Shown piece by piece: positions 3,101-64,000 of a stretch of 64,000 nucleotides of DNA. A model generated the notes under the pieces. It was not told the DNA's origin and did not search any database. It saw nothing but the letters and a program-made list of their open reading frames with translations. The stretch comes from Catonia carolina (taxonomy: Eukaryota; Arthropoda; Insecta; Hemiptera; Achilidae), in contig JAQMRL010000012.1 of assembly GCA_035578175.1 (NCBI GenBank), forward strand, positions 19,602,048 to 19,666,047, given 5' to 3'. A program made the position numbers and the translations under genes. Every line of letters starts with the position of its first letter. Positions within the stretch are counted from its first letter, which is position 1.

Positions 3101-3230
3101 TACTTTCTCTTGCCTATATGAATATATAGGAAGGAAAGTATTGTTTTCATGTCGATTTTTCATAATCGAGTTTGCACCGGATCTGCACGTTTTCAGACCT
3201 CAACCCAAAAAAACATGTTTTTAGCGATTG

Positions 3231-3279
<49 letters not shown>

Positions 3280-4061: not shown

Positions 4062-4334
4062 TTGAATGTCTTGACACGGTAATGAAATAAGCCATGAAGT
4101 GGCAGTTGCAAGTTTTTATAACTGTAACCTATAAGAATCGGCTAAGGAAACCGATACGCCGTTTCATAAAATATTATTGCATGAAGATTCGTGACAAAGC
4201 ATTCGACCAAAATTTTGGCTTCCAAGAAACAGAAGAAAATGACTTACAATAACAGAATAAAGTGACTTTATTGTGAAAAAATAAAGGTTAGTGAAAAGTA
4301 CGCATTTTATTATTGAATAGGGTATAAGGTTACC

Positions 4335-4497: not shown

Positions 4498-5262
4498 TAT
4501 TTTCTCTTGCCTATATGAATGTATAGAAAGGAAAGTATTGTATTCTATATCGAGTTTTCAGACCCCCTGAAGCCATAAAACGTTTTTAGCGATTGTTGTG
4601 TGTGAACAAAATATCTCAAGAACGGAACATCGCGCGAAATTTAAACTTGAAATTTAAGTTAGATACCTCTAGAGGACCCGACAAGAACATTTTCATCAAA
4701 ATCGGTCAACCGGAAATAGTAGTTAATTCGTGTAATTTTTCACTTTTTGCGATTTTCTCAAAAACGGCTCCTACGATTTTTTTTAAAAATCCTCATTTAC
4801 TGTATATTTTGTAATCTACAGGATAGGGTAGGCGCCATGTCTGTTGAAATTCTTGGGGAGGTTGTGCTCTCGTAGAAAAAAATGTTTTTTTAAGATTGCG
4901 GCCTTAATATGCATTTTAGCGTAGAAATGTATGTAGGTAAAGTTGGAGAAAATTTAAAACGTACAACTTTTATTGCAAACATTTTTTTGTATAACGCTTA
5001 GTTTAGCGGTAATTAGTAATTTTCTGTTTTTTATGAAAATCTGTTAAAAAATGTTTTTTTAAAAGATTTCAGCCTTAGTAGGCCTATGCATTTTACGACT
5101 AAAGTGTAATAATCAAATCGAAGTGTATTATGAACTTTATAGGGAATTAAAAGATCTACAAATTTTATTTTGAGCATTCTTCTGTACAGAGCCTAGTTTA
5201 GCGTGGACGAGTAATTTTTGGTATTATTAAGCCAAACTGAGGTTAATTTTCATTTTGCATTA
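4498..5262 (+). mobile_element. ACTT element copy 3, 3'-truncated
   Basis: It begins TTTCTCTTGCCTATATGAAT and carries the ATCGGTCAACCGG block and two modules. Homology fades after 'ttcattttgcattatttt', before the usual 3' hairpin. The GT tract is only about 6 bp. Confidence 0.7.
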
Positions 5263-5557
5263 TTTTAACTGTATGTAATATTGAAATATTAACTCATTGA
5301 GTACATGAAACCATTAAATAAATCAATCATTTAATTAATTTAACATAATTTAATTAAATATTATTGAATAATTTAATAATTTGTCAATAAATAGTTTAAG
5401 GTTAACTTGAAAAAGGAAAAAACTTTAACGTTAACTTGAAAAATATTGAAATATGATTTTTTTAATACTTTTCCCATTTTTGTTGTTAAGCATCTTATCG
5501 TTTTTAAAAACATTTAACGCTAACTTTAAACATATTGATGTATGATTTTTTTAAATA

Positions 5558-6524
5558 CGAGGCATGTTCAGAAAGTAAGTACCGTTTTTAAAAAAAACAA
5601 GTAAAACAATTTTTTTTTCAACACAATTTTATTTCTACGTGAAAGCCCAAACCTTAAACTATTTTCGACATAGTTTCCCCCGATGTTCAAACACTTGTCG
5701 TACCGGGTGATCAATTTGTCTATACCCTCTTCGTAGAAAGTTCCCGCGAGCGAATGTAGCCACGACTCCACGGCAGTTTTCACTTCATCGTCGGTTTCAA
5801 AGCGTTGGCCGCCTAGCTCGCGCTTCATGTGCAGGAACAAGTGGTAGTCAGACGGTGCCAAGTCCGGGCTGTAGGGCGGGTGATCGAACTGCTCCCAACG
5901 AAATTTTCGAACCAATGTTTAAATGTCACCAGCGGTATGGGGCCGAGCATTGTCATGGAGCAACACAATTCCGTTACTGAGCATTCGTCTCCGTTTGTTT
6001 TGAATTGCCCGCCTTAGTTTTCTTAAGGTTTCGTACCTTGCCGCATTAATGGTTTCACCTCTTGCGAGAAAATCAATCAGCAAAACACCTTTCCGATCCC
6101 AAAAGACAGTGCACATGATTTTTTTGTGCAGATATTGTCGTCTTGAATTTTTATTTCTTCGGGGATTGCGTGTGTCGCCACTCCATTGACTGCTGTTTAG
6201 ATTCCGGTGTGACATGACGGACCCAAGTTTCATCACCTGTCACAATTTTGTTTAAAAAATCCTCGCCATCATCACTGTACCGTGTGAGAAAAGTCAAAGC
6301 ACTTCCGAGTCTCTTGGTTTTGTGCACGTCAGTGGCGGGAACCTTCTACGAAGAGGGTATAGACAAATTGATCACCCGCTACGACAAGTGTTTGAACATC
6401 GGTGGAAACTATGTCGGAAAATAGTTTTAGGTTTGGGCTTTCATGTAGAAATAAAATTGTGTTGAAAAAAATTGTTTTACTTGTTTTTTTTTTTAAACGG
6501 TACTTACTTTCTGAACACGCCTCG
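5558..6524 (-). mobile_element. mariner element with foldback ends, second family
   Basis: TA-flanked terminal repeats begin CGAGGCATGTTCAGAAAGTA (left) and match the right end GAACACGCCTCG. Transposase segments on the minus strand include KKIMCTVFWDRKGVLLIDFL, LLHDNARPHTA (second Asp) and HPPYSPDLAPSDYHLF (third Asp region), split into two frames at about 5917. The right ~190 bp (6332-6524) is an inverted copy of the left ~190 bp, which encodes the C-terminus (FYEEGIDKLITRYDKC). It replaces the 5' half of the transposase gene. The element is non-autonomous and from a different mariner subfamily than the one at 26-965. Confidence 0.9.
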
Positions 6525-6582: not shown

Positions 6583-6974
6583 TTGCCCATAACAGACAGG
6601 TGGAGTGTCAAATTATTTACACTTAAACTGTTCGTTGCAGGGCTAAAATAAATAGTTCTGTTTCTTATCACATGGTCAGCGAATTAAATGACTGAATCGT
6701 TTAAGAACAGAAGCGGTAGAGGTGTAAAAGACACTAATCAGAGTTATCTCTCTGAAGGTATGGATTTCATTGTAAAGCCAGACCCTGTGGTGAATGAAGT
6801 GAAGGTGTCATTTAGAGTGGAAAATATGTGCTTATCAGAGGGCCCGGCAGGCTGATAAGCGTACTTTTCCATTCTGTGAGGAAGGCAATTGTAAACCACC
6901 TCACTCCTCGTTTTACTTAGTAAAACCTCTACAGGTTCAAACCAGCCTTTTGGGTGATGACCTAAACAACAACG
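6583..6974 (+). mobile_element. SINE-like repeat A, copy 2
   Basis: This is a near complete copy. It starts TGCCCATAACAGACAGGTGG, includes CCAGACCCTGTGGTGAATGA, and ends GATGACCTAAACAACAAC. A run of ten Gs (7006-7015) lies just downstream. Confidence 0.75.
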
Positions 6975-7534: not shown

Positions 7535-7919
7535 TAACAGGCAGGTGAAACGTCAAATTATTTGCACTCAATCTGCTCGTTCTAGGGCTGTAAAAAATAG
7601 TTCTGTTTTTTATCCCATGATCAGCCAATTATATGACAAATATTTAAGAACAGAAGAGTTAGAGGTGCAAAAGACACCAGTCATAGTTATCTCCTCTGAG
7701 AGTAATGATTTTCATTATACAGTCAGTCTCTGTGGTGAATGAAGTGAAGGTGTCATTAGCAGGGTGGAAAGTAGGTGCTTTTCGGAAGGCCTGGCATGCT
7801 GATAAGCATACCTTTACACTCAGTGAGGAAGGCAATGGTAAACCACCTTACTCCTCGATTTGCTTAGTAAAACCAGCAGAGGTTCAAACCGGCCTTTCAG
7901 CTGATGGCCTAAACAACAA
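7535..7919 (+). mobile_element. SINE-like repeat A, copy 3
   Basis: The copy runs from AACAGGCAGGTGAAACGTC to GATGGCCTAAACAACAAG. It shares GGAAGGCAATGGTAAACCAC and GAGGTTCAAACCGGCC with the other copies. The open frame inside it is not conserved. Confidence 0.75.
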
Positions 7920-13939: not shown

Positions 13940-14339
13940 GTGTTGTTGTTGTTTAGGTCAACAGCCGAAAAGCTGGTTTGAACCTCTAGAGATTTTACTA
14001 AGTAAAACGAGGAGTGAGGTGGTTTACCATTGCTTTCCTCACTGAGTGGAAAAGTACACTTATCAGCATGCCGGGCCCTCTGAAAAGCACATATCTCCAC
14101 TCTGTAAATGACACCTTCACTTCATTCACCACAGGGTCTGGCTGTACAATGAAATTCATTACTTTCAGAGGAGATAACTCTGATTAGTGTCTTTTACACC
14201 TCTACCTCTTCTGTTCTTAAATGATTCAGTCATTTAATTGGCTGACCATGTGATAAGAAACAGAAATATTTATTTTAGCCCTGCAACGAACAGATTGAAT
14301 GTAAATAATTTGACACTCCACCTGTCTGTTATGGGCAAA
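13940..14339 (-). mobile_element. SINE-like repeat A, copy 4
   Basis: This complete minus-strand copy is flanked by the perfect 11-bp duplication AATTGGTAACT (13929-13939 and 14340-14350). The plus strand reads TGTTGTTGTTGTTTAGGTCA at the tail side and CCTGTCTGTTATGGGCAAAA at the head side. It defines the ends of the family. Confidence 0.85.
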
Positions 14340-19762: not shown

Positions 19763-22700
19763 GTAAGTATTTATTACTTTTTTCTTTATATAAATTTAAC
19801 GTTAGTATGATTAGCATATAATATACTATTATTGAGTTCAACATATCTGACATTACTAGTAAAGTTGTAACGGGTGTTTCAAAAACCGAGTTACTCATTT
19901 TTTAGATGACATGAATGTGGTACCAAAAATATTAAATTATTCTTGCTGGAACGAACATTCTTGTTTGTGTTAATCTTTATTGTTAAGTTCAATATCTGAC
20001 ATCAGTAGTAAAGTTTATACTGGGTGTTTTATAAAAGACACTACTTTTTTTTTAGATGACATGAATGTGGTACCAAAAATTATAAATTAATCTTGCAAAA
20101 CACTCTCGTTCGTCTAAATCTTTATTGTTAAGTTCAATATCTGACATCAGTAGTAAAAATGATAACAGGTGTTTCAAAAAACAAGTAACTCATTTTTAGA
20201 CGACATGAATGTGGTACCAAAATATTTAATTAATCCTTCAGGAACAAACATTCTTGTTCGTGTAAATCTGTATTGTTAACCCTTAAGGCTCCGGCTGTTC
20301 CGTAACTATTCTGCTTGTAATACGCAGCGCCCGTAGCACATTCCTTTCCCATAACATCACACGCACATTCATATTGTTAAATTTATTTATGAAAAACGAT
20401 TTGTAAAGCATATTTTTATTTAAACGTACATATATTCATGTACAATTCATGCAAATCCTGTTGCAGGAGAATGACATGAGGGTGACTTGTTTGGGAACAC
20501 TGCAGGTAGTATTATGTCGTGCGCCACTCCCTCTCCCCTTTGCTACTGCATACATTAGACCCAACCGTTTGTAACAAAAGCAAATTTCTATAGAAAAATG
20601 TCACTGCTTTCATACACTAAAAAATGTGTTTGTATGTTGACCTACGGACGGCCTGCATGCGATATCTGTTTGCATAAAAATTTATCAACACTCTAGCCTA
20701 CCCTTCACACTAAAACAATAATAAAATATTTCCATTTCAACATATTCTATTTCTGTAAATGCTATTAGTTGCATTGAAGATATATCTACAAAATAAATAC
20801 AATTATGACCGGTTTCAGACATATATTGACCTCACTGCAACAAGTTTTTTTGCGTAGTCCACTACCAATTTCTATAACCACTGAAGTGGCTTCACGCCGC
20901 ACATGAGTTAAGTTCAACGTATATTCTTCCCTCCAATGGTAAAGTCACGAATGTGCAAATTTTGCGATTATGAGTTTGTTAGTGCATGATGATGTATACA
21001 ACCCCCAACGCATCTTGCAGTAAACTCGTGAATATGTATCTTGTTCAGTTAGGGAGATGCAGCCTTTGTAAAGTTACGAAAATACACCAAGTGTGTTAAA
21101 GAAGAAAGCATTGAATATTTTTTTGCTCTCCTGTAAAACTGAGAATTTGCACATTCGCGAGTTTACCATTGGATGGACGATATGACATCAGTAGTAAAGT
21201 TATAATGATTGTTTCAAAAAACAAGCAAATCGTTTTTAGATGACATGAATGCGGTACAAAAATTTGAAATAATCCTCCTGGAACCAACATTCTTGTTCAT
21301 GTAAATCTCTGTCTTAAGTTCTACAGAGATTGATTTTCAATTATCGTCATTCACTCGTGATTAAAATTAGGTTAAGTTTATCATTTTACATTGTTTACTC
21401 ATGATTAAACATAGGTAAATGTATTTAATTATTATTATTTATACTTTAAATTATTTACATTGGCAAGAGAAAATCGTGCGAATGTTTTATACCAGATTTT
21501 TTTTTGTTGCAGATCAATTTTAATGCTACAATATGGCACGATATTAAACGACCCAGCTATGATACCTGTGAATATCTTCGGATTTGGTCTAAATCTAATT
21601 TATTTTATTGTCTACTATTTTTATTCAAATGAAAGGGTTAGTATAATTATTCTATACAGGTTAGATTAGATTATGTTGTTGTTTAGGTCATCAGCCGAAA
21701 GGGTAGTTTGAAACTCTGAGTCTCAACCAAGTAAAACAAGGAGTGAGGTGGTTTACTAAATGTCTTCCTCACTTAGTGGAAAAGTACGCTTATCAGCATC
21801 CCAGACCCTCTGAAAATCATCTACTTTCCCTGTGGTGAATCACAGGGTCTGTTTGTATAATGAAAATCATTACTCTCAGAGGAGATAACTCTGACTATTG
21901 TCTTTTACACCTCTACCTCTTCTGTTCTTAAATGCTTCATTCGTATAATTGGTTGACTAATTAATAAGAAACAGAACTATTTTTTGTAACTCTGGAACTA
22001 GCTGATCGAGTGCAAATAATTTAACACTCCACCTGGGTGTTATGGGCACAGATTAGATTTACAATCTCTATAAGTACCAGATATATTCAGTTAAAGCAGA
22101 AGTTGCCAAACCATTGATCACAAGCTACTGGTAGATTGCGGCTCGCTTCCGGGTTGATGAATTATTCTTTATTTCAGGCTTAGAATAATTAATACATTCG
22201 TCAGTACTACTTTATCAACTTATCAACATGAGAAGCATTTATATTTTATTAATAAGGTTCTGCCTTAATAATATGTATTTTAAGGCAAAAGTGTACATAA
22301 TTAAAGTTGTACAAAATTAAAAACCTACAACTTTTATTTCAAACATTTTTTCTACGCCTTAGTTTAGCGTCAATTCGTGATTTTCTGTAATTTGCTTATC
22401 AATATCTCTAAAAATTTGATTTCTTTTAAGACTGCAGTCATTTTACAACAGAAATGCATATAATCAAAGTTATAAAAAAATCTACAACTTTTATTTTGAG
22501 AATGTTTTTTCTACTTGACTTAGTTAAGCAACAAGTAATGATTTTACATAGTAAGTTCTACAGAGATTGATTTTCATTTAGCGTCATTCACTCATGGTTA
22601 AACATAGGTTATATTTTTCTTTATGTACATAGGTAAGAAAAAGTCGGTGAGTGTTTCATACCAGATTTTTTTAATATATATTGGAATATTTCTGTGTAAT

Positions 22701-25700
22701 TTATCAAGGTCATTGTTCTTGAGATAAAAAACTGTTTTGATAAGAAAATACTACTTGTAATGATTAAGCAAATAGAGACCAAACATAAAATAAAATTATT
22801 ACTATTTTTTTTTCAGTTGATTTTATATGATTTATTGTGACTGTTCAAAAGAACATGAATGTTACCATATTGTAACCTAATGACCCTGTCCAAAAATTTT
22901 TAATTTATTTCATGTGAAGCGTTTACAATAATAAATCTAATGTGTTTTATCTAATTTACTTGTGATTGTTAAACCAAGTACACATTAGAGTATCAAAGAA
23001 CAGTATAAAGATAAACTGTCACGGTTTGCCAAACAACCTAGCAATCATTTCTAGGAACACTGAAACAGCAATAGATCAAATCAACCTGTTAGAAGAAAAA
23101 GCAGGACTACAGATTTCCTTCGAGAAAATTAAATACATAGCAAACATCAAAACAGCCCCACACTTAAAGACACAATACAGAAAAATTAAGAAAGTTGATA
23201 GTTTGAAGTACCTCGAAGAGATAATACAACCAAAGATTGACGAAAAGGAAGTGAACAACAGCAGACGAGTAAAGATGGCCGGTTCACTCGATGGACTCAC
23301 CACTTGTATAAGAAGAAAGCATTGTCAAGAGAAACCAAGATTAGGTATTATAATATTGCGATAGAACCGGTGTGTCTTTATGCGAGTGAGTGCCTTAGAA
23401 TGACCGGAAAAGCTAGTCTAAAAGAAGCCAAGAAATGTGAGTGAAAGATCCTTCGCAAGAAAATGGGTTTGAATACATTTGAAAATGGGTATACAGACAA
23501 TACAGGTATGAGGTTAGAAGAACTGTACAAGGAAAATGTACGATTAGAGTAAGACAACTAAAATTTTACAGACACCTGTGTGGAATGGATTACAACTGGT
23601 TAACAAAAGAAATTTTTAAGACATTAAAGAATAGACCTAAGGTGTCAGATAAATGATTTAAAGAAGTCAGAAAGGATTTTGAAAAAGCCAAAATAAACCG
23701 AGAAAACTCAATGAACCGAACCAAATTCAGACAACTAATTACGGACTTTAAAGGCTTTTTTGAAAAAACAGAACACAGTTTTGTCAAAAACAGCTCATGA
23801 TTTTTTTAAAAACTTCATTTTTTATGCTGTACAAGGTAGAGTAAGCACCATGTCTACTAAAATTCTAGGAGGCTGTGTTCTCATGGTAAAAAATTTTTTC
23901 TTTTTAAGAGTTCGGCCTTGGTATGCATTTTACGAAAAAAAAGTACATAATCAAAGTTATAAGAAATTAAAAAACCTACAACTTTTATATCACACATTTT
24001 TCTACAGATCGTCATTTAGTATTAAATAGTAAATTATATTGTTCATTGTTTACATTGGTAAGAGAAAGTCATTGTAAGTATTTCACACCAGAAGTTTTAT
24101 GAATCTGTTATGAGTGTTTTTTTGTGTTTTGTGCACCAAAAAATAACACATTTTTTAATGATTTCAGAACGATCTTCATTCGAAGGTAGCAAAAGGTGTT
24201 GCCCTTGTTGCAGTATTACTAAGTTATGTTCGTGTAGAGTATGAAGAAAACGTAGAATTCAGATTTGGTATGATCGTTACAGTATTAATGTTATCCCTTA
24301 TCGGTGCACCTCTTTTACAACTTGGTGATATCATTAAATCAAAGAGTACTGCTGGTCTTCCGTTTCCTTTGATCTTATCAGGATCTGTTGTCACACTTCT
24401 GTGGTTGATATATGGTGTTATTATTAAAAACGTCTTCATGCAGGTATGTTACCTAATTGGTTTTTGTATGTTTACTTTTTCATTCCCTATATAAAATGTT
24501 TAGGGAAAGAAAGTATTGTTTTTATGTTGATGTTATAATATCGAGTTTTCACCAGAAATACACATTTTCAGACCCCCTGAACCTAAAAAACATGTTTTTA
24601 CCAATTTTGATCTGGGTGTTAGTAAAGAAAATATCGTACGATTTTGAAACTTGGAACTTAACTTATTTTCATCAAATTGGTCTGTCAGTAGTAGTTTATT
24701 CGTGCAATTTTCTCAAAAATAGCTTCTACGATTTTTTTTAAAATCACCCCTCATTTACTTCATTTTTTTTTGCTCTTCAAGATAGAATAAGCAGCTTGTC
24801 TCCTGAGATTCTTGGGAGGGTTGTGCACTTGTATAATAAAAAGAGTTTTATTAAGTCCCTACACTGGTTGATTTTCATTTAGCATCATTCACTCACAATT
24901 AAAATTAGGTTATTATTTAAATTCTATATTATTTACATAGGCAAGAGAAAGTCGTGTCAGTGTTTCACACCAGATTTTTAGTTTTAGAAATACTAGGTGC
25001 ATAAATGAAGGAATAAAACTAATGTTTTATAATTTTGTTATTCAATGAAAATCTCAGTTGCTCATTGTCTCTTCAAAGTAATTTTCTGAGGAAGCGACAC
25101 AGCGATGGAGATGATTTTTCCACTCTTCATGGCAGTACTGAAAGTTGTACACTAAAATTGCCTTCAGCTGGTTGGTTATGGAAGTTTTAATCTCTTTCCT
25201 TATCCAAAAATGAGCCCTTTGGATTTATGAAGCCCTTCGAGTTGGTTTTTCAATTTTGGTATTAGAAAAACGTCACGCTGGTGGATTATTTTTACTTTCT
25301 CTTGCCTATACGAATATAGGAATGAAAGTATATTGGTTTTCATGTTGATTTTTTGAAATCAAGTTTTCACTGAATATTCACGTTTTCAGACCTCCTGAAC
25401 CCAAAAAACATGTTTTTAGCAATTGTTTTGTGTGTGTGTGTGTGAACAAAAAATCTCGAGAACGGAATGTCAAACGAAGTTGAAACATGAAAATTGAGTT
25501 AGGTACCACTAGAGGACCCAAAACAAACATTATGAAAATTGGTCAACTGGAAGTATTTGTTTATTTGTGTCATTTTTCACTTTTTTATGATTTTCTCAAA
25601 AATGGCTCCAACAATTTTTTTTAAATCGCCTCATGGACTACATTGTCTTTGCTCTACAAGATAGGGTAGGCGTCATGTCTGCTGAAATTCTTGGGGAGGA

Positions 25701-28700
25701 TGTGCTTTTGTAGAAAAAAATTGTGTTTTTAAGATTGCGGATTTGATGTGCATTTTAGTGCAAAAACATATATAATAAAAGTTGTAGACAATTTAAAAAT
25801 CTACAACTTTTATTTCAAACATTTCTTTGTATAACGCTTATTTAAGTGATAATTAGTGATTTTCTGGGTTTTTTTTTCCATGAAAATCTGTAAAATAAAT
25901 TTTTTTAAATTTCTGTCATAGTGTGTATTTTATGGCAAAAGTGCATGTAATCAAATTTATAGGGAATTTAAAGATCTACAACTTTTATTTAAGTATTTTT
26001 CTCTACAGAGCCTAGTTTAGCGTCAAAAAGTGATTTTTCCGTATTAAGGCAAACTAAGGTTGGTTTTCATTTTGCATCATCACTCATGATTAAAATAAGG
26101 TTATGTTTTTGAGGTTAGCTTTTTGTTTATTTCTAATGTTTTATTTCTAATATTTTATTACTAATGTTAGGTTACAGTGGTCATTATTTGAATTGGCTAG
26201 AGAAAGTCTTGTGAGTTTCACACAGATTTTTTTAAAATTTATTTGTCGTTATAGCCAAAAAACCAGGTTGTTTATCTTCGCCTGTCACTCCACACAGGCA
26301 TGTACAGGGCCCAAGTGCAGAACGCAGTTTTCTTATAATACTACAATCTTACAAACTACCAGTATCACAGGCACAAAAAATAAAAAAATTTTGTAAAGTG
26401 GCTACAAAAATCATGCAAACATGGGAATATGAACTTATAGCTAATATCACTGATAGAGGAAATCTAATAGTCCACTCCTCCCATGACTGTCACACACTGA
26501 TATATCGAAGGAATCTAAGAGTCACGTCCTAAATAGGGCTTTCATCACTGAGTATATTTTGTAATTCAAGTGGTATCTTGAATCGTAGATGCAATCCAAC
26601 AACACATGTTTGATCGTCAAAGGACAACTGCACCTGCCACGGATTAGAGCATCATCAGAATTTATGAGATACCCATGGGTTAATCTGGTGTACCCAATTT
26701 TAAGTTGTGCGATAACACTTCCTCCCTTACATTCTTCCTTAGTGAATTAGGCCAAATGCTTTTTGTTTTAGTTTAGATTATCGGCTAAAAGGCTGGTTTG
26801 AACTTATAGAGGGTTTACTAAGTAAAACAAGGAGTGAAGTGGTTTACCATTACCTTCCTTACTGAGTGGAAAAGTATGCTTATCAGCATGCCAGGCCCTC
26901 TAAAAAGCATCTACTTACCACCTTGCAAATGACACCTTCACTACATTTACCACAGGGTCTGGCTGTACTGTATAATGATGAAATTCATTACTCTCAGAGG
27001 AGATAACTTATTAGTATCTTTTACGCCTATACCTCTTCTGTTCTTGAATGTTTCAGTCATATATGGACTGACCATGTGATAAGAAAAATAATTATATTTT
27101 GTAGCCCTGGAACTAGGAGATTGAGTGCAATTTAACTAGTAAACAATGTTTAATTGTTTATGTATTATCAGTATGTATTATATGTATGCATTTTTCCAAT
27201 TTCTGTTTGTTTTACGTATGGCAAATTTTCAAAACCCTCTTGCAGTTCGATGCAAATTGATGCCAGCATTCCTGCTTTTTTTATTCTATATGAATAATCT
27301 GCACAAGTTGAATCCCACAAAGCTGTTTTGCTTTGAATTGTGCCAATAAATCATTCTACATTCAAAAAATCACAGGAATCGGTTGGTGACATGTTGACCG
27401 TTAACACGTTCGTACACAACTGAATGCCTCGCTTGTTGACAAGAGTTGATACAAAGTTGAGGGAGGTTGATAAGGATCTGCTGTTGACGGCAGTGGTTGA
27501 AGGTTGTGCGACGGACAGTTTATCATTAACACTCTATCATTTAAAACCATACCTCTCCTGTTGTGTGTGGTGTGGTAGCAAGTTGATCATTTACTAGAAG
27601 CCTATAACCTAACATTAGTAATAAAACATGACAAATAAACAAAAAAGCAACGTAATTTTAATCATGAGTGAATGATGCAAAATGAAAACCAATCTTAGTT
27701 TGGCTTAATAATACGGAAAATCACTCCTTGACGCTAAACTAGGCTCTGTAGAGAAAAATGTTTAAAGTAAAAGTCGTAGATCTTTTAATTTTCTATAAAT
27801 TTGATTATTAACACTTTTGTCGTAAAATACATACTACGGCCTAAATCTTCCAAAATCAAAAAAACATTTCTTTACAGATCTTCATGAATAAAACCCAAAA
27901 ATCACCAATTACCGCCAATCTAAGCATTGTACAAAGAAATGTTAGGAATAAAAGTTGTAGGTTTTTAAATTTTCTACTACTTTGATTATACACTTTTGCC
28001 CAAAAATGCATTTTAAGGCCGGAATCTTAAAAAAAAACACTTTTCTCCGAGAGCACAGCCTCCCCAAGAATTTCAGCAGAAATAGAGGTAACCTTCTTTT
28101 TAAACTGCGTCTCCTTTATTTTATTCCTACTTACACGTGTTTCGGTGGATCCACCATCATCAGAGTAAATGAAAAATTGAAACTAACATTTTTTTCATTT
28201 ATTTAAAATTTACAGAAGATGATACATCTTCAGTCACTTGTATAAAACTTAAAGAGTTATACTATAAACGAGTTTTATACAAGTGACTGAAGATGTATCA
28301 TCTTCTGTAAATTTTAAATAAATGGAAAAAAATTTTTAGTTTCAATTTTTCATTTACTCTGATGATGGTGGATCCACCGAAACACGTGTAAGTAGGAATA
28401 AAATAAAGGTGACGCAGTTTAAAAAGAAGGTTAGTGAAATTATTATATTAATTCATTATATGAAATAGAAATAGAGGTGTTTTAAAAAAATTATAGGAGC
28501 TGTTTTTAAAAAATATCACCAAAGTAAAAAATTTCACGAATAAACTATTACTTTCAGTTGACCAATTTTGATGAAAATTTTTGTGTCGGGTCCTCTAGTA
28601 GTACCTAACTTAAGTTTCAAGTTTCAACTTTGTACAATATTCGTTCTTTGAATATTTTGTTGACACACACACACACACACACAGACCAATCGCTACAAAC

Positions 28701-29368
28701 ATGTTTTTTTGGTTCAGGGGTCTGAAAACTTGTATCTGGTGAAAACTTTATTTTGAAAAATTAACATGAAAACAATACTTTCCATCTTATATATTCATAC
28801 AGGCAAGAGAAAGTAAAAATGAAGAAGTAATTGCAATAATAATGACATCAATTAAGGAAAAAAGTGTGTGTTAATCGAACATGGTTGTTCTGCTGTGTAC
28901 AGCCAGGCGGTCAATGTGGCAACGCCAGTCCCTCTCCCTTGCCAAGCACCAGTCCTATTTTGTAATTAATTCAACTATAATTGACCGGATAGCAATGACC
29001 GAATCAGTGCACACAACATCCAACGCCCACAAACACATAGTTGAGGGATAAGGGAACTAAGGAGCTACAGTGATGGTTTGACTTGTCACAAACTCATTTA
29101 TTAAAAATTCAGTATAACAAAAGTGCTTAGTCATGATGCAGCACCAAATTGTTCTTGATACTGGTCTAATATTCTACCAAAAAAACTGTATCCTTTTAAA
29201 TCTATAAATTTTAATTTATTTAAAAATATATTATAGTTTGTATGTTTCTTTTTATAGGTACAAAATGTGGTTGCATTTACATTATGTGTCATTCAGTTAT
29301 CGCTGTTCGTAATCTACCCGAGTACAAGCAATGAAGAAAAAATTGGAAAAGATAAAAAGAAAAATTGA
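19685..29368 (+). CDS. SWEET1: SWEET sugar transporter (MtN3/saliva, SLC50), 3' four exons
   Basis: SWEET proteins are seven-helix membrane uniporters that move glucose or sucrose down a gradient across plasma or internal membranes. Joined exons 19685-19762, 21513-21636, 24168-24443 and 29258-29368 encode about 195 residues with consistent phases (2,0,0) and GT/AG borders. FICKDIVQKGSTKDIDPMPF is the loop after helix 1. SILMLQYGTI starts helix 2, PVNIFGFGLNLIYFIVYYF is helix 3 with the conserved Asn, and GAPLLQLGDIIKSKSTAG with LPFPL and LLWLIYG form the second MtN3 repeat. QNVVAFTLCVIQLSLFVIYP is helix 7 with its Asn. The tail is lysine-rich. Helix 2 has Met where many members have Trp; the second-repeat Trp is kept. 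The exon with the start codon and helix 1 was not found. Introns are filled with ACTT copies, SINEs, LINE and mariner. Confidence 0.92.
19865..20280. repeat. Tandem array of ~145-bp units in SWEET intron
   Basis: Three units start near 19870, 20021 and 20164, each with a gGGTGTTT start, GACATGAATGTGGTACCAAA and 'attgttaagttcaatatctg'. A fourth unit at about 21180-21310 runs directly into the 3' part of an ACTT copy. The units may therefore belong to a longer version of that element. Confidence 0.75.
20281..21180. repeat. Unclassified repeat block in SWEET intron
   Basis: This block separates the third and fourth ~145-bp units. Its 20570-20870 part resembles 63395-63700 (shared TATTCTATTTCTGTAAA and ACCGGTTTCAGAC), so it is a dispersed repeat. 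No coding region is seen. Confidence 0.55.
21310..21497 (+). mobile_element. ACTT element 3' end abutting a SWEET splice acceptor
   Basis: Only the last ~190 bp of the element is present: TTCTACAGAGATTGATTTTC, then TTACATTGTTTACTCATGA, then GGCAAGAGAAAATCG, the hairpin and ACCAGAT. The T-run after its end forms the polypyrimidine tract of the exon starting at 21513. Confidence 0.8.
21513..21636 (+). CDS. SWEET1: SWEET exon b (helices 2-3)
   Basis: The acceptor is tttgttgcag and the donor gttagt. After the split Ile codon, 41 residues run from SILMLQYGTI through PVNIFGFGLNLIYF to YYFYSNER. The conserved Asn of helix 3 is in VNIFG. The exon ends in phase 0. Confidence 0.92.
21673..22049 (-). 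mobile_element. SINE-like repeat A, copy 5
   Basis: This minus-strand copy in SWEET intron 2 begins 36 bp after the exon. It is flanked by the perfect 10-bp duplication AGATTAGATT (21663-21672 and 22050-22059). Confidence 0.85.
22245..22670 (+). mobile_element. ACTT element copy 7, 5'-truncated
   Basis: Two internal modules remain, with AAAGTTGTACAAAATTAAAA and CTACAACTTTTATTT. The 3' end is GAAAAAGTCGGTGAGTGTTTC then ATACCAGAT. Confidence 0.7.
22940..23770 (+). mobile_element. LINE reverse-transcriptase 3' fragment
   Basis: A plus-strand ORF (22966-23364) reads NLAIISRNTETAIDQINLLE just after a mutated YADD box (here LPNN), then AGLQISFEKIKYIANIKTAP and VDSLKYLEEIIQP. Further pieces follow in other frames: YASECLRMTGKASLKEA (about 23378-23428), and NRTKFRQLITDFKGF near 23705-23760. 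It is 5'-truncated, frameshifted and dead. It belongs to the same broad group as the fragment at 58050-58720. Confidence 0.88.
23780..24097 (+). mobile_element. ACTT element copy 8, partial
   Basis: It joins directly onto the LINE fragment and starts inside the element at AAAAACAGCTC. It contains CACCATGTCTACTAAAATTC and ends GTAAGAGAAAGTCATTG...TTTCACACCAGA. Most of the second module is deleted. Confidence 0.65.
24168..24443 (+). CDS. SWEET1: SWEET exon c (helices 4-6)
   Basis: This 276-bp, phase-0 exon encodes 92 residues with acceptor atgatttcag and donor gtatgt. KVAKGVALVAVLLSYVRVEY is helix 4, FGMIVTVLMLSLIGAPLLQL helix 5, and SGSVVTLLWLIYGVII helix 6 with the conserved Trp and Y-G. The KSTAGLPFP loop matches the second MtN3 repeat. 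Confidence 0.95.
24474..24985 (+). mobile_element. ACTT element copy 9, internally deleted
   Basis: The 5' end (ACTTTTTCATTCCCTATATA) lies 30 bp after the SWEET donor at 24444. The internal modules are missing. The end is GGCAAGAGAAAGTCGTGTCAGTG, TTTCACACCAGAT. Confidence 0.75.
24995..25287 (-). mobile_element. mariner-like C-terminal fragment
   Basis: The minus strand encodes HEEWKNHLHRCVASSENYFE followed by ETMSN and a stop (about 25052-25125), the C-terminal W-C-NYFE pattern of mariner-type transposases. FLIPKLKNQLEGL (about 25225-25265) lies upstream. Its other end is cut by the ACTT copy starting at 25288. Confidence 0.7.
25288..26233 (+). mobile_element. ACTT element copy 10, near full length
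   Basis: It starts ACTTTCTCTTGCCTATACG and ends GGCTAGAGAAAGTCTTGTGA, TTTCACACAGAT. It carries two modules and the AATTGGTCAACTGGAAGT block. It lies in the last SWEET intron. Confidence 0.75.
26764..27137 (-). mobile_element. SINE-like repeat A, copy 6
   Basis: This minus-strand copy in the last SWEET intron carries the rc of GGTAAACCACTTCACTCC and ends in a degraded CTAAAC tail. Its head side abuts ACATTGTTTACTA (as minus), the same motif that flanks copy 1. Confidence 0.75.
28126..28169 (-). ncRNA. Hammerhead-ribozyme-like core, left arm
   Basis: This is the minus-strand twin of the core at 28353-28396, identical in all key positions: CTGATGA (28157-28163), GAAA, CACGTG and the GUA triplet. 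It lies head-to-head with the other copy, so a read-through transcript in either direction would contain one sense core. Confidence 0.55.
28353..28396 (+). ncRNA. Hammerhead-ribozyme-like core, right arm
   Basis: The order is that of a minimal type I hammerhead: stem I strand TTTACT, core CTGATGA (28359-28365), stem II GGTG-GATC-CACC, core GAAA (28379-28382), a very short palindromic stem III CACGTG, triplet GTA (cleavage expected after 28390), and stem I strand AGTAGG. Stem I pairs over six positions, two of them G-U. An extra T between CTGATGA and stem II departs from the textbook core. Short-stem-III hammerheads of this kind are known from Penelope-like elements and are thought to act as dimers. 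Activity here is inferred only. Confidence 0.6.
28655..28685. repeat. (AC)n tract in inverted ACTT copy 11
   Basis: This is the complement of the GT tract found in every long copy of the ACTT element. Confidence 0.85.
28819..29257. other. End of the last SWEET intron, no gene seen
   Basis: A GC-richer patch at 28900-29060 (GGCAACGCCAGTCCCTCTCC) is probably part of another repeat, but I could not classify it. The last ~100 bp are AT-rich and lead to the acceptor at 29257. Confidence 0.5.
29258..29368 (+). CDS. SWEET1: SWEET terminal exon (helix 7 and tail)
   Basis: The acceptor is ttttatag. The exon encodes VQNVVAFTLCVIQLSLFVIY, then PSTSNEEKIGKDKKKN and TGA (29366-29368). The Asn in QNVV and the QL-LF-YP pattern are the family's helix 7 hallmarks. 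The cytosolic tail is short and lysine-rich. Confidence 0.93.
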   Translation, partial: VQNVVAFTLCVIQLSLFVIYPSTSNEEKIGKDKKKN

Positions 29369-35968: not shown

Positions 35969-36300
35969 TACAAGGTGTGATCAAAAAATACTGTGAATGA
36001 TTTTACTACGAATGAACTGCAGACACTACATCCATTTGAAGTAAAAAGTTCAATAGCCTGGTTCATTGACAAAAATCAGTATCAAATTTGAACAAGTTGC
36101 AACTTGTCAGTTGGCTTCCAGACCCGGAAGAGAGGCCATGTTTACCGTGTCTGTCATGCATCATGGTTTCGAACATCGCGTTAACATTAATTTTGTTTTA
36201 AGTTCCAAAAAAGTGCCATAGAAGCTCATGAAATGTTAAAATTAGTGTATGACGATAATATAATGACTCTGAAGACTGTTAGCAAGTGGTATGTATGATT

Positions 36301-37165
36301 TAAAAATAAATCTTTATAATGCATCCTGCAGTTTGAAATATTTCTATTTCATATAATGAATTAATATAATAATTTCACTAACCTTCTTTTTAAACTGCGT
36401 CACCTTTATTTTAGTCCTAAATAAAAAATTGAAACTAAAAATTTTATTCATTTTAAATTAATTTTCATTTCAATTTTTGATACTTAAATGCCATTTTAAT
36501 AATATCTTCATTCAAAAATAAATCTTTATAATGCATCCTGCAGTTTGAAATATTTCTATTTCATATAATGAATTAATATAATAATTTCACTAACCTTCTT
36601 TTTAAACTGCGTCACCTTTATTTTAGTCCTAAATAAAAAATTGAAACTAAAAATTTTATTCATTTTAAATTAATTTTCAGTTTCAATTTTTGATACTTAA
36701 ATGCCATTTTAATAATATCTTCATTCAAAAATAAATCTTTATAATGCATCCTGCAGTTTGAAATATTTCTATTTCATATAATGAATTAATATAATAATTT
36801 CACTAACCTTCTTTTTAAACTGCGTCACCTTTATTTTAGTCCTAAATAAAAAATTGAAACTAAAAATTTTATTCATTTTAAATTAATTTTCAGTTTCAAT
36901 TTTTGATACTTAAATGCCATTTTAATAATATCTTCATTCAAAAATAAATCTTTATAATGCATCCTGCAGTTTGAAATATTTCTATTTCATATAATGAATT
37001 AATATAATAATTTCACTAATCTTCTTTTTAAACTGCGTCACCTTTATTTTAGTCCTAAATAAAAAATTGAAACTAAAAATTTTATTCATTTTAAATTAAT
37101 TTTCAGTTTCAATTTTTGATACTTAAATGCCATTTTAATAATATCTTCATTCAAAAATAAATCTT
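36301..37165. repeat. Four tandem 213-bp units
   Basis: Units start at about 36302, 36514, 36727 and 36940 (period 212-213) with AAAAATAAATCTTTATAATG and are almost identical. Each contains the rc of the palindromic element's tail and arm (CTAACCTTCTTTTTAAACTG, AAAAATTGAAACTAAAAATT) but lacks the ~40-bp hammerhead-like segment between CCTA and AATAAAAAATTG. The array splits a mariner transposase. Confidence 0.9.
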
Positions 37166-37432
37166 TCAAACTGCAGGATGCATTATAAAGATTTATTTTT
37201 GAATGAAGATATTATTAAAATGGCATTTAAGTATCTTTATTATTTAAGTATAAAGAGCTTACTTAAATTAATTTTCAGTTTCAATTTTTGATACTTAAAT
37301 CAAAAATTGAAACTGAAAATTAATTTAAAATGAATAAAATTTTTAGTTTCAATTTTTTATGTAGGACTAAAATAAAGGTGACGCAGTTTAAAAAGAAGGT
37401 TAGTGAAATTATTATATTAATTCATTATATGT
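37166..37432. repeat. Inverted unit closing the 213-bp array
   Basis: Right after the fourth tandem unit the sequence turns around: AAACTGCAGGATGCATTATA and TAAAATGGCATTTAAGTATC are reverse complements of the units. It ends with GTTAGTGAAATTATTATATT as at 28430-28467. The flanks repeat ATGTATGATTTAAAA on both sides of the whole insertion, suggesting a ~15-bp target duplication. Confidence 0.85.
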
Positions 37433-38138
37433 ATGATTTAAAATTAAAAAATGAGTCTATTGAAGATAAGGAATGGTCAGGATGTCCTTCCACCTCAAAA
37501 ACAGATGAAAACATGCCAAAAGTGGTAAAACTGGTTCTTTCAAACATCCAATTGACTATTCAAGAGCTTACTAAAGAACTGAACATCTCGTACGAGTACG
37601 AACAAAGCATTTTAATCAATAATTTGCAAATGAGATGAGCGAGTCTGAAATTCGTTCTTCAACTTTTGACGCCCGTACCACACCTCACTTTTTGATCCAG
37701 AGTTTTCAACTAAAAAAGATTCCTGTCTGTCCAGGTCCATCTTACTCTCCAAATTTAGCACCATGCGACTTCTGGCCCTTGTAAAAAATAAAAACTGTGC
37801 TGAAAGCAAAATATTTTGATACCATTTCCGACATTGAGAGGCCTCAACAGAGCAGCTAAAGGCCCTTCCAAAAGAAGCGTACCAGAAATGCTTTCAGTCA
37901 TGGAATCAACATTCACATAAGTGCATTGCTAGGCCAAGGAGATTAATTCAAAGATGTAAGCTTATTACTTTGTTCATAATAAAATTATTCATCGTATATT
38001 TTGATCACACCTCGTACGTCTGTGCTTCATGATTCAGTGTAACCGCTGTAACTTTCACTTATTGCTTTCATTGTAGATTTAAGAAAAGTTTATGTGTTAG
38101 GTAATCTTCATGTGATTTAATTTCATATAACATTAGTT

Positions 38139-39093
38139 TGCCCATAACAGGCAGGTGGAGTGTTAAATTATTTGTACTCAATCTACTAGTTCCAGAGCTA
38201 CAAAAAATAGTTCTGTTTCTTATCACATGGTTAGCCAATTATGTGACTGAACCATTTAAGAACAGAAGAGGTAGAGGTGTAAAAGTCACTAGTCAGAGTT
38301 ATCTCCTCTGAGAGTAATGAATTTCATTATACTGTCAGACCCTATGGTGAATGAAGTGAAGGTGTCATTTGCAGGGTGGTAAGTAGATGCTTTTCAGAGG
38401 GCTCAGCATACTGATAAGCATACTTTTCCACTCAGTGAGGAAGCTAATGGTAAACCACCTCACTCTTCGTTTTACTTAGTAAAGCCTCCAAAGAAATGAT
38501 TCCCAAAGTTGGGAGTGTGCTCCCCAAGGGAGGTGTGAAGACAAGTCTAGGGGGTCCCGGAACCTCAAGATAACTTTGCCGTCCGTGTGTCCAGAGATGT
38601 TGTGATTCACAAGTCAAGTTTAAGCATTTAGCACAAAGTGTACCCCAGGATATCTCACAAGCACTGCAATTCTATTTATCTTTTTCAAGCACCTATTTGT
38701 GCAAAAAAGCGTTTTCAGTACTTGTTGCAATAAAGACAAAATATCGAGGCAAACTTGATGTTGCTAATGATTATGCACTTTCTAATAATCAACTAAGAAT
38801 AGGGAATCTGATAAAATAATTTCAAGGTCATCGATCTTACTGATATTTTTTTTTTTTTTGTTTAATTTAAATTGCAACTTCTATTGTCATAAAAAACAAT
38901 AAAAAATAAATGTATGGTTATTCAGTGTAATACTGTAGGCTACTTGTTTTTTGTGCCATTACCATATAAAATTGTGTAAGGGGCGTGGAAAGTTTTTTTC
39001 TAGACTAAAGGAGACATGGTGAAAAAATGTTTGGGAATCACTGCTTTAGAGGTTTAAACTAGCCTATTGGCTGCTAATGATCTAAAAAACAAC
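38139..39093 (+). mobile_element. SINE-like repeat A, copy 7, split by a hAT remnant
   Basis: The head (TGCCCATAACAGGCAGGTGG) to AGTAAAGCCTCC is at 38139-38487 and the tail (AGAGGTTTAAACTAGCC...AAAACAACA) at 39050-39093. The gap is filled by a hAT element. Confidence 0.8.
38496..39046 (+). mobile_element. hAT element remnant (ZBED-type)
   Basis: The right end GTTTGGGAATCACTG pairs with the left ATGATTCCCAAAG. Flanks CTCCAAAG and CTTTAGAG are a decayed 8-bp duplication of the SINE's CTCTAGAG. The plus strand keeps the C-terminal dimerisation block: STYLCEKAFSVLVAIKTKYR followed by GKLDVAND (about 38680-38770). No catalytic core remains. Confidence 0.8.
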
Positions 39094-43562: not shown

Positions 43563-43857
43563 TCACTTTCTCTTGCCCTATATGAATATATATGAAAGGA
43601 AAGAATTGTTTTCATGTCTAGTTTTCACCGGATATACACGTTTTTAGGCCCCCTGAACCCAAAAACATGTTTTTAGCGATTGTAAGGTTTTAGCGTTTTG
43701 TACGTTCATAAGTTTGGTATCTCTAGGGGACCGACACGAACATTTTCATCGAAATCGGTCAACCGAAAGTAGTAATTTATTCGTGCAATTTTTCACTACC
43801 GATTTTCTCCAAAACTGCTCTTACGGTTTTTTTTTTAATTAACCTCCTGCTACAGTT
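43563..43857 (+). mobile_element. ACTT element copy 17, left part (split by copy 18)
   Basis: It starts CACTTTCTCTTGCCCTATAT and runs to TCCTGCTACAGTTTTT, where copy 18 begins. The remainder is at 44761-45296. Confidence 0.8.
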
Positions 43858-44760
43858 TTTACTTACTCTTGCCTACATGAATATAGGCCTATAGGAAGGA
43901 AAGTATTGTTTTCGTATCGATTTTTCGAAATCGAGTTTTCACCAGATACAGTTTTCAGACCCCCTGAACCGAAAAACCATGGTTTAGCGATCGAGTGAGT
44001 GTATGTGTGTGTGTGAACAAAATATCTCAATAACGGATCATCGTACGAAGTTGAAACTTGAGACTTTGGTACCACTAGAGGACCGGACGCGAATATTTTC
44101 ATTAAAATCGGTCAACCTGAAGTAGTTTATTCGTGTAATTTTCACTTTTTTGCGATTTTCTCAAAAACTGCTGCGATATTTTTTTAAATCGTCTAATTTA
44201 CTACTTTTTTGCTCTATATGATAGGGTAGGCACCATGTCTGCTGAAATTCTTGGGGAGGCTGTGCTATCGTAGAATTTTTTTTTAGATTGCGACCTTAAT
44301 ATGAATTTTAGGGCAAAAGTGTCCCTCAAATCAGTTTCTAAAATCAAAGTTGTAGAAAATTCAAAACGCTAAAATTTTTTTTGTAAAGCGCTAAGTTTAG
44401 CGGTACCTAATTAGTGATTTTCTGTTTTTTTTCATGAAAATCTCTAAATGGATTTTTTAAGATTTCGGCCTTATAATGCATTTAACGACAAAAGTGTATA
44501 TAATGGAATGCATAGGAAATTAAACGATCTATAACTTTTATTTTTTTAAGTAATATTCTCTACAGAGCCTAGTTTAGAGTCAGTGATTTTCCGTACTATT
44601 AAGCCAAACTGAGGGGTTTGTTTTTATTTTGCATCGTTCACTCATGATTAAAATAAGGTTAGTTTTTTGTTTATTTCTAATGTTTTATTACAAACATTAG
44701 GTTATGTTGTTCATTAGCATTGTCAAGAAAAAGTCGTGTGAGTGTTTTCACACCAGATTT
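43858..44760 (+). mobile_element. ACTT element copy 18, full length, nested in copy 17
   Basis: The copy is complete, from ACTTACTCTTGCCTACATGA to CACACCAGAT. It is inserted in a T-run of copy 17 (ACAGTTTTT before, TTTTTATGCTCC after). With two modules, it is a good reference for the ~0.9-kb length of the family. Confidence 0.88.
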
Positions 44761-45296
44761 TTATGCTCCAAAAGGTAAAATAAGTGCCATGTCTGCTGAA
44801 ATTTTTGGGGAGGCTGTGCTCTTGTGGAAAGTTTTTTTTAAGATTGCGGCCTTAGTATGCATTTTATAACAAATTTATAATTAAAAGTTTTAGAAAATTT
44901 AAAAAATCTACAACTTTTATGTTATGAATTTTCTTCTACAGAGCTTAGTTTAGCGTCAATTTAGTGATATTTTTTTGTATTTTGCTCATCATTATTGGTA
45001 AAAAAATGGGATTTTTTTAGATTGTGGCCTTATTATCTGTTTCACAACAAAAGTTAAAGGAAATTAAGAAACCTAAAAAACTTATTTTTAAGCATTTTTC
45101 TCTCAAGAGCCTAGTTAGAGGCAATATTCTGTATTTTTATACAGAGGCTAATTTTCATTTTGCATCATTCACTTACGATTAAAATTAGGGCGTTTTTCAT
45201 TTTACATTGTTACCTAATGATTAAACGTGGGTTACGTTGTTTATTATCTACATTGTCAAGATTGTTGTGTAAGTGTTTCACATCTAATTTTTTTGA
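44761..45296 (+). mobile_element. ACTT element copy 17, right part
   Basis: It resumes at ATGCTCCAAAAGGTAAAATA, exactly where copy 17 stopped, and ends TTGTGTAAGTGTTTCACATC. Confidence 0.8.
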
Positions 45297-62501: not shown

Positions 62502-64000
62502 GTATGTGTAGTTTTGTGTTTTTGTCTGCTCATATTCTACTTATAGTATTAGTGAAATCTTTTGATTAATTTTTAACCCTTCAGTGTGTAATTTTTTCAT
62601 TGGGTTGGATCATTATCTCTTTTTCCAGTTGTGTACTATTCATCACAAAATTTGTTTTGTATTATAAGGAAACTTTTATAAAAGTATAAAATAATATAAG
62701 ACCATGAATTCTAAAGACAATACTACACTATGTCTGCTGAAGTTCTTGGGGCCTGTGCTCTCAAAGTAAATTTTGTATTTTTAACCCTTTGGAAACTGAC
62801 TGTTCCTTGTTAAACAGAAGAATTGCAAAATTCAAAACGCGCTCTCAAAACAACTGTTTAATGTCTAATGTCATGAAAAATTCTGAAAATATTACAGTTG
62901 ATTCATATAATACGTACGTGCTTTTTGAGTATAATTACAACAAAATCGCTTTATAATTCTTAGCATTTCGGCGAACGAAATTTTCAACCGCGAAAATTTT
63001 TGTGTTTACTTTATATTTTTTACTATAATGGGCTTAAACTTCAGTTTAGCAAACAAATTTATAAAACATGTTATGTAGATAAGAATTTACTGGAATAAAT
63101 ATTTTTTTAATTTAAATTTCCGTAAATATTTGACGAAGTTATAAAATGTTCAACGTGAGTCCATTTTCACATCACAGGGAAGCATTAAGGGATGGTATTT
63201 TACATTCTTTACGGTGATGTCACAGAGCCACTATTATATTTAGGTTACAGCTGTAAGCAAAGAAATGTAGAAAATTCTTTTCTCTACACCTACACGTTTT
63301 GAAAAATTCTGTAGGTGCGGTTAGAAGGAAGCCATTGCAACCCGGCAAAGTGTCGAATTATTTGCCTCTGTGATTGTAAACCCCCTCCTGAAAAGTAAAA
63401 TGACTTCTTCCTTTTCCAAGAGCAAATGCCATAACAGAATCGTCATAGCTTCTACACAAAGAACATGCATGTACGTTGACTTACACATGAGCTACACGGA
63501 TTTCCATTCAAAACAAACAATTCCCAAATCATCAATACTACCTACACACTATAGAGGGATTAAAACTTTTCCCTATTATGATATTCTATTTCTGTAAACA
63601 CTAGTAGATGCGTTAAAAAATTCCCTGAAAAGAACAATATATACCGGTTTCAGACTTATACTGACCTTGCAGAAGCACATTTTATTGCCCCAACCACAAT
63701 CCATTCGGTATCATCTAAAATTAGATTACCAGTGTGAACAGGGTTAAGATTACAGCCTTAAATATATTACAACAATATTATGCACAATCAAAGTTCATTT
63801 ATAAATAAATCTTATAATGCATCCTGTTCATAAAATTGAAACTAAACTTTTTAAAATTTTAAGATATATATTCTGAAAATTTTAGTTTTCAATTTTATGT
63901 ATTCTGATGATTCTGAATCGACCTAAATATGTTAGTAAGTAGATAGTATATACAGTTGAGTAGAAAATCTGAACCAATTGGGACCATGGATATTTCGGAT
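62502..64000. other. Start of Bap60 intron 3 with repeat fragments
   Basis: No further exon was recognised. Small ACTT fragments lie at about 62727-62775 (TGTCTGCTGAAGTTCTTGGG) and 63745-63800. The block 63395-63700 is the partner of the dispersed repeat at 20570-20870. Confidence 0.55.
63800..63945 (+). repeat. Decayed relative of the palindromic/213-bp repeat with degenerate hammerhead core
   Basis: AAATAAATCTTATAATGCATC and AAAATTGAAACTAAA match the 213-bp units. At 63904-63910 CTGATGA is kept, followed by TTCTGAATCGACC and GTTAGTAAGTAG where the 28.4-kb copy has stem II, GAAAC and GTGTAAGTAGG. GAAA and stem II are lost, so this core should be inactive. Confidence 0.6.

What the first reader, a model, noticed from the sequence alone, without database searches (positions are those of the whole stretch)
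28090..28467. Palindromic insertion carrying two head-to-head hammerhead-like cores
Seen: both arms contain CTGATGA, a GGTG/CACC stem, GAAA, CACGTG, GTA and a six-pair stem I in the order of a minimal type I hammerhead. Known: short-stem-III hammerheads occur in Penelope-like elements and cleave better as dimers. Inference: the inverted arrangement means transcripts from either strand carry one core, and the perfect CACGTG palindrome could pair between two molecules. The extra T before stem II is a deviation to be tested.
Basis: partly seen in the sequence, partly recalled or inferred. Interest (0 to 1): 0.75.

Follow-up and report, generated by a model that had tools for sequence, protein, structure and literature searches.

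The report
Head-to-head pair of Penelope-type retroelement ends
This looks like a dead scrap of a mobile genetic element in an animal genome: two mirror-image copies of its end piece, each carrying the outline of a self-cutting RNA; the type is known, but two neighbouring copies, one with the ribozyme cut out and one with it decayed, make it a useful example.

Summary
A 377-bp insertion (28090-28466) between 12-bp repeats consists of two head-to-head arms, 97-98% complementary. Each carries a hammerhead-like core beyond chance: a strict descriptor found 0 cases in 414 Mb of simulated sequence. Rfam finds no hammerhead and folding prefers another pairing, so catalysis is unproven. Best reading: a non-autonomous insertion of Penelope-like-element (PLE) type, two inverted pseudo-LTRs. 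Only one arm has a 33-bp tail, as PLEs optionally do. The "extra T" makes an ATG at stem II, 26 nt before the predicted cut, as published for the anole PLE PAc. Two related insertions lie in the window: a 213-bp tandem array lacking exactly the ribozyme, and a decayed copy. The inversion probably arose by reverse transcription primed on both target strands; self-priming is not excluded. A read-through transcript would fold into one duplex hiding the cores. No PLE protein gene was found (20 of 250 ORFs scanned), no clean empty site was seen, and the own genome could not be searched. An animal retrozyme is the main rival. New member of a known kind.

The parts
28078..28089 (.). left copy of the flanking duplication AGAAATAGAGGT
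   Evidence: read directly; 12/12 identical to 28467-28478
28090..28249 (-). left arm: pseudo-LTR-like copy in minus orientation, without tail
   Evidence: inverted repeat
28126..28169 (-). hammerhead-like core of the left arm (stem I to stem I); predicted cleavage between 28132 and 28131; ATG at 28157-28155
   Evidence: descriptor hit on the minus strand; string
28250..28270 (.). turn between the arms
28271..28433 (+). right arm: pseudo-LTR-like copy in plus orientation
   Evidence: inverted repeat
28353..28396 (+). hammerhead-like core: stem I 28353-28358/28391-28396, CTGATGA 28359-28365, extra T 28366, stem II 28367-28378, GAAA 28379-28382, stem III 28382-28389, predicted cleavage after 28390
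   Evidence: descriptor; string
28365..28391 (+). ATG at stem II and its 8-codon frame MVDPPKHV, closed by TAA at the predicted cleavage site
   Evidence: translation; ATG-to-cleavage distance 26 nt
28434..28466 (+). 33-bp tail present only on the right arm
   Evidence: the right arm goes on matching the array unit through 28473, the left arm stops at the equivalent of 28433
28467..28478 (.). right copy of the flanking duplication (its first 7 bases also match the element, so the duplication is 5-12 bp)
36290..36305 (.). left copy of the 16-bp duplication TATGTATGATTTAAAA around the related array (about 4 bases at one end of each copy may be element)
36306..37427 (.). related insertion: 213-bp unit, about 4.1 copies in minus orientation, then inverted pieces ending in a plus-orientation copy; the ribozyme is absent from the units and from the last copy
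37428..37443 (.). right copy of the 16-bp duplication
63803..63957 (+). third, decayed copy: CTGATGAT kept, GAAA changed to TAAA; starts with a piece in inverted orientation

Best explanation
It is a non-autonomous, truncated insertion of Penelope-like-element (PLE) type. Two copies of one pseudo-LTR, each with a minimal type I hammerhead motif overlapping a relic start codon, lie head to head between a short target-site duplication. Likely mechanism: a PLE protein supplied in trans cut both strands of the target; each free 3' end primed reverse transcription inside an element RNA, at two neighbouring start sites 33-40 nt apart; each cDNA ran past the hammerhead, stopped about 80 nt upstream of it, and the two were joined in the middle. 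The result is a palindrome with a tail on one side only. Shown: the inverted arms, the one-sided tail, the flanking duplication (with the caveats below), the motif, the ATG spacing, and two related insertions nearby. Inferred: the PLE enzyme, two-strand priming, and any ribozyme activity. Today the locus is most likely inert; if transcribed it would give long double-stranded RNA rather than a free ribozyme. The confidence given is for the identity as a PLE-type insertion; within that I put about 0.65 on two-strand priming.
For: The motif is far beyond chance (control). Flanking duplications of 12 bp and 16 bp surround two independent insertions of the same family. The layout matches published PLE anatomy (passages of PMC3846280): inverted pseudo-LTRs of 181-218 bp, most often head to head, palindromes at the inverted junction, an optional 31-bp tail on one inverted copy, duplications of 8-10 bp in the copies named, and a pseudo-LTR that includes the first codons of the ORF. 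The ribozyme geometry matches the anole PLE PAc (main-text section of PMC11167929; [quoted passage not shown] An 81-bp segment just downstream of the ribozyme (28393-28473), ending in the tail, is identical at 80 of 81 positions between the two insertions, while the part just upstream is 89% identical and parts further up differ, as expected of a conserved RT recognition end.
Against: No RT or GIY-YIG gene in the insertion, nor by Pfam in the 20 of 250 ORFs (>=55 aa) scanned. No Rfam hammerhead hit. The array's 213-bp unit is of retrozyme size, and its left end lies 33-51 nt beyond the tail, not at either of the two ends used by the finding. The first 7 bases of the right flanking repeat could be element sequence. 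In 7 of 7 paralogous host-repeat copies aligned across the site there are extra bases there (about 40 in 5, fewer in 2), so a clean empty site was not seen. PMC3846280 also names Penelope copies without a duplication, so the duplication is neither required nor specific. The 26-nt spacing is largely fixed once an ATG sits at stem II of a motif this short, so it is not independent of the motif. Arms of equal 5' length are not predicted by two independent priming events unless both stop at the same place. PAc showed no difference in start site between top and bottom strand.
Confidence: 0.7

Rival explanations
1. It is a metazoan retrozyme: a small non-autonomous element whose ribozyme processes tandem transcripts into circular RNAs of about 170-400 nt, which are then reverse transcribed by another element.
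For: Unit size 213 bp in the array (about 251 bp if the 38-bp ribozyme stretch is added, an inference), low GC and a tandem array with a duplication longer than 4 bp fit the published description (PMC7229834, text parts 1-3 of 6 and passages), as does a very short helix III with a palindromic loop, like axolotl HHR_Amex1. Insects are named there among the carriers of such repeats.
Against: The tandem array has lost the ribozyme, and the intact ribozyme copies are not in tandem but inverted; the one-sided tail, the ATG at stem II and the inverted pseudo-LTR layout are PLE features. The two classes may overlap: the same paper names PLEs as a strong candidate for the mobilising partner.
Confidence: 0.2
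2. Same element, other route to the palindrome: a cDNA (or an antisense template) folded back on a palindrome at its end and primed its own second strand, giving a hairpin that was integrated. (Confidence is within the PLE reading, not added to it.)
For: Both arms end at the same 5' point, the turn is only about 20 nt, and the arms carry a small palindrome (GAAGATGTATCATCTTC) near the turn. Self-priming was proposed for Adineta PLEs because of palindromes at inverted junctions.
Against: A copied-back arm should include the 33-bp tail unless trimmed; the left arm lacks it. The four differences between the arms that the array unit can polarise are all private to the left arm; that fits either later mutation or copying errors and does not decide.
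Confidence: 0.35
3. A fold-back (inverted-repeat) DNA element or microRNA-like hairpin in which the hammerhead resemblance is accidental.
For: Long hairpin; matches to miRNA families (best E 4.6e-21); no Rfam hammerhead hit.
Against: Chance control. The miRNA rows are all below gathering score. A related copy occurs as a direct tandem array, and the best-conserved part of the family is one end piece, not a pair of terminal inverted repeats.
Confidence: 0.05

Closest known systems
Penelope/Poseidon-type PLE pseudo-LTRs (PAc of Anolis carolinensis; Pen2a of Adineta vaga)
   Same: Inverted head-to-head pseudo-LTRs, one-sided 30-40 bp tail, short target duplication, minimal type I hammerhead overlapping the ORF start with 26 nt to the cleavage site (PAc), end of the insertion about 100-118 nt into the ORF.
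   Different: No ORF here: the ATG frame closes after 8 codons at the predicted cleavage site; the insertion is nothing but the two end pieces, with arms of about 160 bp.
Metazoan (non-LTR) retrozymes
   Same: Small AT-rich units, tandem array nearby, type I hammerhead motif, duplication longer than 4 bp.
   Different: Here the tandem units lack the ribozyme and the ribozyme copies are inverted.
Newt/axolotl satellite hammerhead HHR_Amex1
   Same: Very weak helix III closed by a palindromic loop; that motif cleaves better as a dimer.
   Different: Extra U between A9 and stem II; no loop-loop contact tested.
Hammerhead with an extra core nucleotide in a viroid (de la Pena and Flores 2001; only its title seen, in a reference list; details recalled)
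   Same: One unpaired base between A9 and stem II (recalled).
   Different: There an A in Chrysanthemum chlorotic mottle viroid (recalled); here a U that also makes an ATG.

Membership tests
Type I hammerhead ribozyme | Catalytic bases CUGAUGA ... GAAA ... NUH before the cleavage site | tested here: met
   both arms
Type I hammerhead ribozyme | Three stems, stem I open | tested here: inconclusive
   the descriptor finds stems of 6, 5 and 2 bp (stem II is 4 bp with a 4-nt loop), but this fold is not the minimum-energy one: -4.7 against -10.8 kcal/mol
Type I hammerhead ribozyme | No base between A9 and stem II | tested here: not met
   extra T at 28366; natural exceptions are recalled, not tested
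Type I hammerhead ribozyme | Match to an Rfam hammerhead model | tested here: not met
   no positive control with a known minimal PLE hammerhead was run
Type I hammerhead ribozyme | Self-cleavage | not testable with these tools
   needs in vitro transcription
Penelope-like element (pseudo-LTR copy) | Inverted or tandem pseudo-LTRs with an optional 30-40 bp tail on one copy | tested here: met
   33-bp tail on the right arm only, set against passages
Penelope-like element (pseudo-LTR copy) | Hammerhead overlapping the ORF start, cleavage 26 bp after the start codon (PAc) | tested here: met
   ATG at 28365, cleavage after 28390; compared with one published element
Penelope-like element (pseudo-LTR copy) | Short target-site duplication | tested here: met
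   12 bp (5 bp unambiguous) and 16 bp (about 8 unambiguous) at two loci; clean empty site not found
Penelope-like element (pseudo-LTR copy) | RT plus GIY-YIG ORF | tested here: not met
   absent from the insertion; 20 of 250 window ORFs scanned with Pfam, none RT or GIY-YIG; so at most a non-autonomous derivative
Metazoan retrozyme | Tandem 150-450 bp units each with a type I hammerhead | tested here: not met
   the 213-bp array units lack the hammerhead; the hammerhead copies are inverted
Metazoan retrozyme | Circular RNA of unit length | not testable with these tools
   needs RNA

The most novel reading that the evidence does not exclude
The neighbouring array is a natural ribozyme knock-out: a 38-bp deletion removed just the hammerhead, with both breakpoints inside stem I, yet the deleted RNA was still copied and inserted as a tandem array with its own target duplication. 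Together with the two-sided priming scar of the finding, this would say that PLE-type elements can amplify end pieces alone, on both target strands, without the ribozyme. Not excluded: that the array grew by DNA-level slippage after insertion.
Probability: 0.25. Interest if true: 0.5.

Novelty: new member of a known kind. Interest (0 to 1): 0.33.

Why it matters
The role of the hammerhead in Penelope-like elements is called a mystery in a 2020 review (passage), and how their inverted ends arise is unsettled: self-priming was proposed in 2013, while PAc was later shown to cut and extend both target strands. Here are three insertions of one family within 36 kb, with the ribozyme motif intact, precisely deleted, and decayed. 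That would make the host genome a good place to test whether the ribozyme matters for insertion, tandem layout or copy number.

Tried and rejected
Rfam at gathering score and at E up to 10 on the window, the insertion and the core: no hammerhead. The high-scoring miRNA rows were rejected as effects of the long hairpin (all below gathering score; inference). Exact-pattern scans of viral contigs with the core, with the conserved end piece and with a looser core: 0 matches each. The scan of genome contigs gave 9 prokaryote matches, rejected as chance because no stems form; an Rfam gathering search of 6 of these 9 loci found no hammerhead, only a tRNA. Retrozyme was considered as the main label and kept as a rival. 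A free active ribozyme per strand was rejected as unlikely because of the -253 kcal/mol duplex. The flanks of the array read like a mariner transposase gene (translated frames), but Pfam and PDB searches of the 37324-37635 ORF gave nothing, so that name rests on recalled motifs. The third copy (63.8 kb) keeps CTGATGA at 7/7, GAAA at 3/4, stem II at 8/12 and stem III plus TA at 6/8, against 30/37 upstream and 8/14 downstream: too little for a claim of conservation or of its absence.

Papers, what I saw: PMC7229834, text parts 1-3 of 6 plus passages; PMC11167929, the main-text section plus passages; passages only of PMC3846280, PMC6155905, PMC7761336 and PMC9608096. Search listings only. Lunse et al. 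2017, Cervera and de la Pena 2014 and Arkhipova et al. 2017 are not held and were seen only in reference lists. I make no claim that anything is absent from print.

Full report
What is there. The window is animal DNA, probably of an arthropod (inference: a SMARCD/BAP60 exon at 62250-62543 by PDB match; a SWEET exon at 24162-24491 and a mariner-type transposase piece at 5922-6239 by Pfam). At 28090-28466 lies a 377-bp insertion between two copies of AGAAATAGAGGT (28078-28089, 28467-28478). It is an inverted repeat with arms 97-98% complementary and a turn of about 20 nt. The right arm continues 33 bp further than the left one before the flank is reached (28434-28466). The insertion sits in an interspersed host repeat whose other copies align on both sides. 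In 7 of 7 paralogues aligned across the site further bases are present there (about 40 in five of them, fewer in two), so the target had lost them before or during the insertion, and I did not see a clean empty site. The first seven bases of the right flanking repeat also match the element itself (identity with the array unit runs to 28473), so the duplication is 5-12 bp, with up to 7 nt of possible priming microhomology.

The motif. Each arm carries, in order, TTTACT, CTGATGA, T, GGTGGATCCACC, GAAA, CACGTG, TA, AGTAGG. Both arms come from one insertion, so this is one observation. A descriptor with the catalytic strings and three stems found 47 cases in 414 Mb of simulated sequence at loose settings and 0 at I>=6, II>=4, III>=2. 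The bare string was found 9 times in the 257-Gb prokaryote collection, never with stems. It is therefore a real hammerhead-type motif, but not a demonstrated ribozyme. Rfam does not recognise it. In a 62-nt context the hammerhead fold has -4.7 kcal/mol against -10.8 for the best fold, in which stem I slips by four bases and the extra U pairs with G12 (pair probability 0.82). Nearest-neighbour energies do not credit the hammerhead core, so this counts against activity but does not decide. Helix III is two pairs in the monomer and palindromic, as in an axolotl motif that cleaves better as a dimer (PMC7229834).

The extra T. It makes the sequence ATG at A9-U-G10.1, where stem II begins. [quoted passage not shown] Here the distance from the A of ATG (28365) to the predicted cut (after 28390) is also 26. 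The frame closes after eight codons (MVDPPKHV, stop at the cut), so it is a relic or a coincidence; the spacing is largely forced once an ATG sits there. Further agreement does not depend on the motif: PAc starts reverse transcription 111-118 bp into the ORF, and the sequence between its two start sites is the optional 30-40 bp genomic tail. Here the longer arm ends 102-109 nt after the ATG, and the shorter arm 33-40 nt earlier.

Relatives in the window. At 36306-37427, between two copies of TATGTATGATTTAAAA, is a second insertion of the family: a 213-bp unit in about 4.1 tandem copies, 99.1-100% identical to one another by blast against one unit, in minus orientation, followed by inverted pieces and a final plus-orientation copy ending in the tail region. 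Its unit matches the finding at 80 of 81 positions downstream of the ribozyme (28393-28473) and at 89% over 38 positions upstream, but the ribozyme itself is missing: a 38-bp gap whose ends lie in the two strands of stem I (alignment). The left end of this insertion lies 33-51 nt beyond the tail, so not all ends fall on the same two sites. At 63803-63957 a third copy keeps CTGATGAT but has TAAA for GAAA and only 8 of 12 stem II bases. Thus of three insertions one has intact cores, one a deletion and one a decayed core. Three copies are too few to show or exclude selection on the ribozyme.

Mechanism. Inverted pseudo-LTRs, most often head to head, palindromes at the inverted junction, a tail on one of them and duplications of 8-10 bp are described for Penelope elements of the rotifer Adineta vaga, and the authors say that the structure is conserved among animals with this kind of PLE; some copies there lack a duplication (passages of PMC3846280). 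They proposed self-priming. Later in vitro work found that PAc cuts and extends both target strands, though without a difference in start site between the strands. For the finding, priming on both strands at two neighbouring start sites explains the outward-facing 3' ends, the flanking duplication and the one-sided tail; self-priming explains the equal 5' ends and the short turn better but predicts a tail on both arms unless one was trimmed. I put about 0.65 on two-strand priming within the PLE reading. The arms reach about 80 nt upstream of the core, past the cleavage site, so the template was uncleaved, multimeric or circular RNA (inference).

Present-day effect. A transcript across the whole insertion folds into one duplex (-253 kcal/mol against -57 for the two halves apart). 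Each core is then paired with its own antisense copy, and cleavage in cis is unlikely; double-stranded RNA is the more likely product if the locus is transcribed at all. This is a prediction from folding only.

Verdict. The insertion is a new member of a known kind, with modest interest that rests on the three states of the ribozyme in neighbouring insertions. The own genome could not be searched, so copy number and an autonomous partner are unknown.

Noticed in passing
36306-37427: 213-bp tandem array of the same family without the ribozyme, flanked by a 16-bp duplication, inside what reads like a mariner transposase gene (recalled motifs; no Pfam or PDB hit for the ORF).
   Followed up: partly
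63803-63957: Third, decayed copy with an inverted left piece and CTGATGAT but TAAA instead of GAAA.
   Followed up: partly
3096-4066, 25288-26236, 43856-44762, 4554-5264, 968-1708, 50784-51433, 27603-28820 and others: Interspersed repeat of up to about 1 kb in at least seven copies, roughly 68-81% identical pairwise (list cut off), not identified; the finding is inserted in one copy.
   Followed up: no
13945-14338, 6583-6973, 7535-7919, 1967-2330, 38137-38483, 26763-27130, 21674-22054: A second interspersed family of about 390 bp, roughly 77-93% identical pairwise, at least seven copies in the window (list cut off).
   Followed up: no
5571-6239 (-): Mariner-type transposase remnant (Pfam Transposase_1 for 5922-6239).
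   Followed up: no
54298-54837 (+): ORF of 180 aa with a DUF4817 helix-turn-helix domain, possibly part of a DNA transposon.
   Followed up: no
55218-55553 and 56282-57103 (-): ORF pieces that resemble non-LTR retrotransposon RT and endonuclease by recalled motifs; no Pfam hit.
   Followed up: no
19827-20279: Tandem repeat of period 145, 3.1 copies.
   Followed up: no
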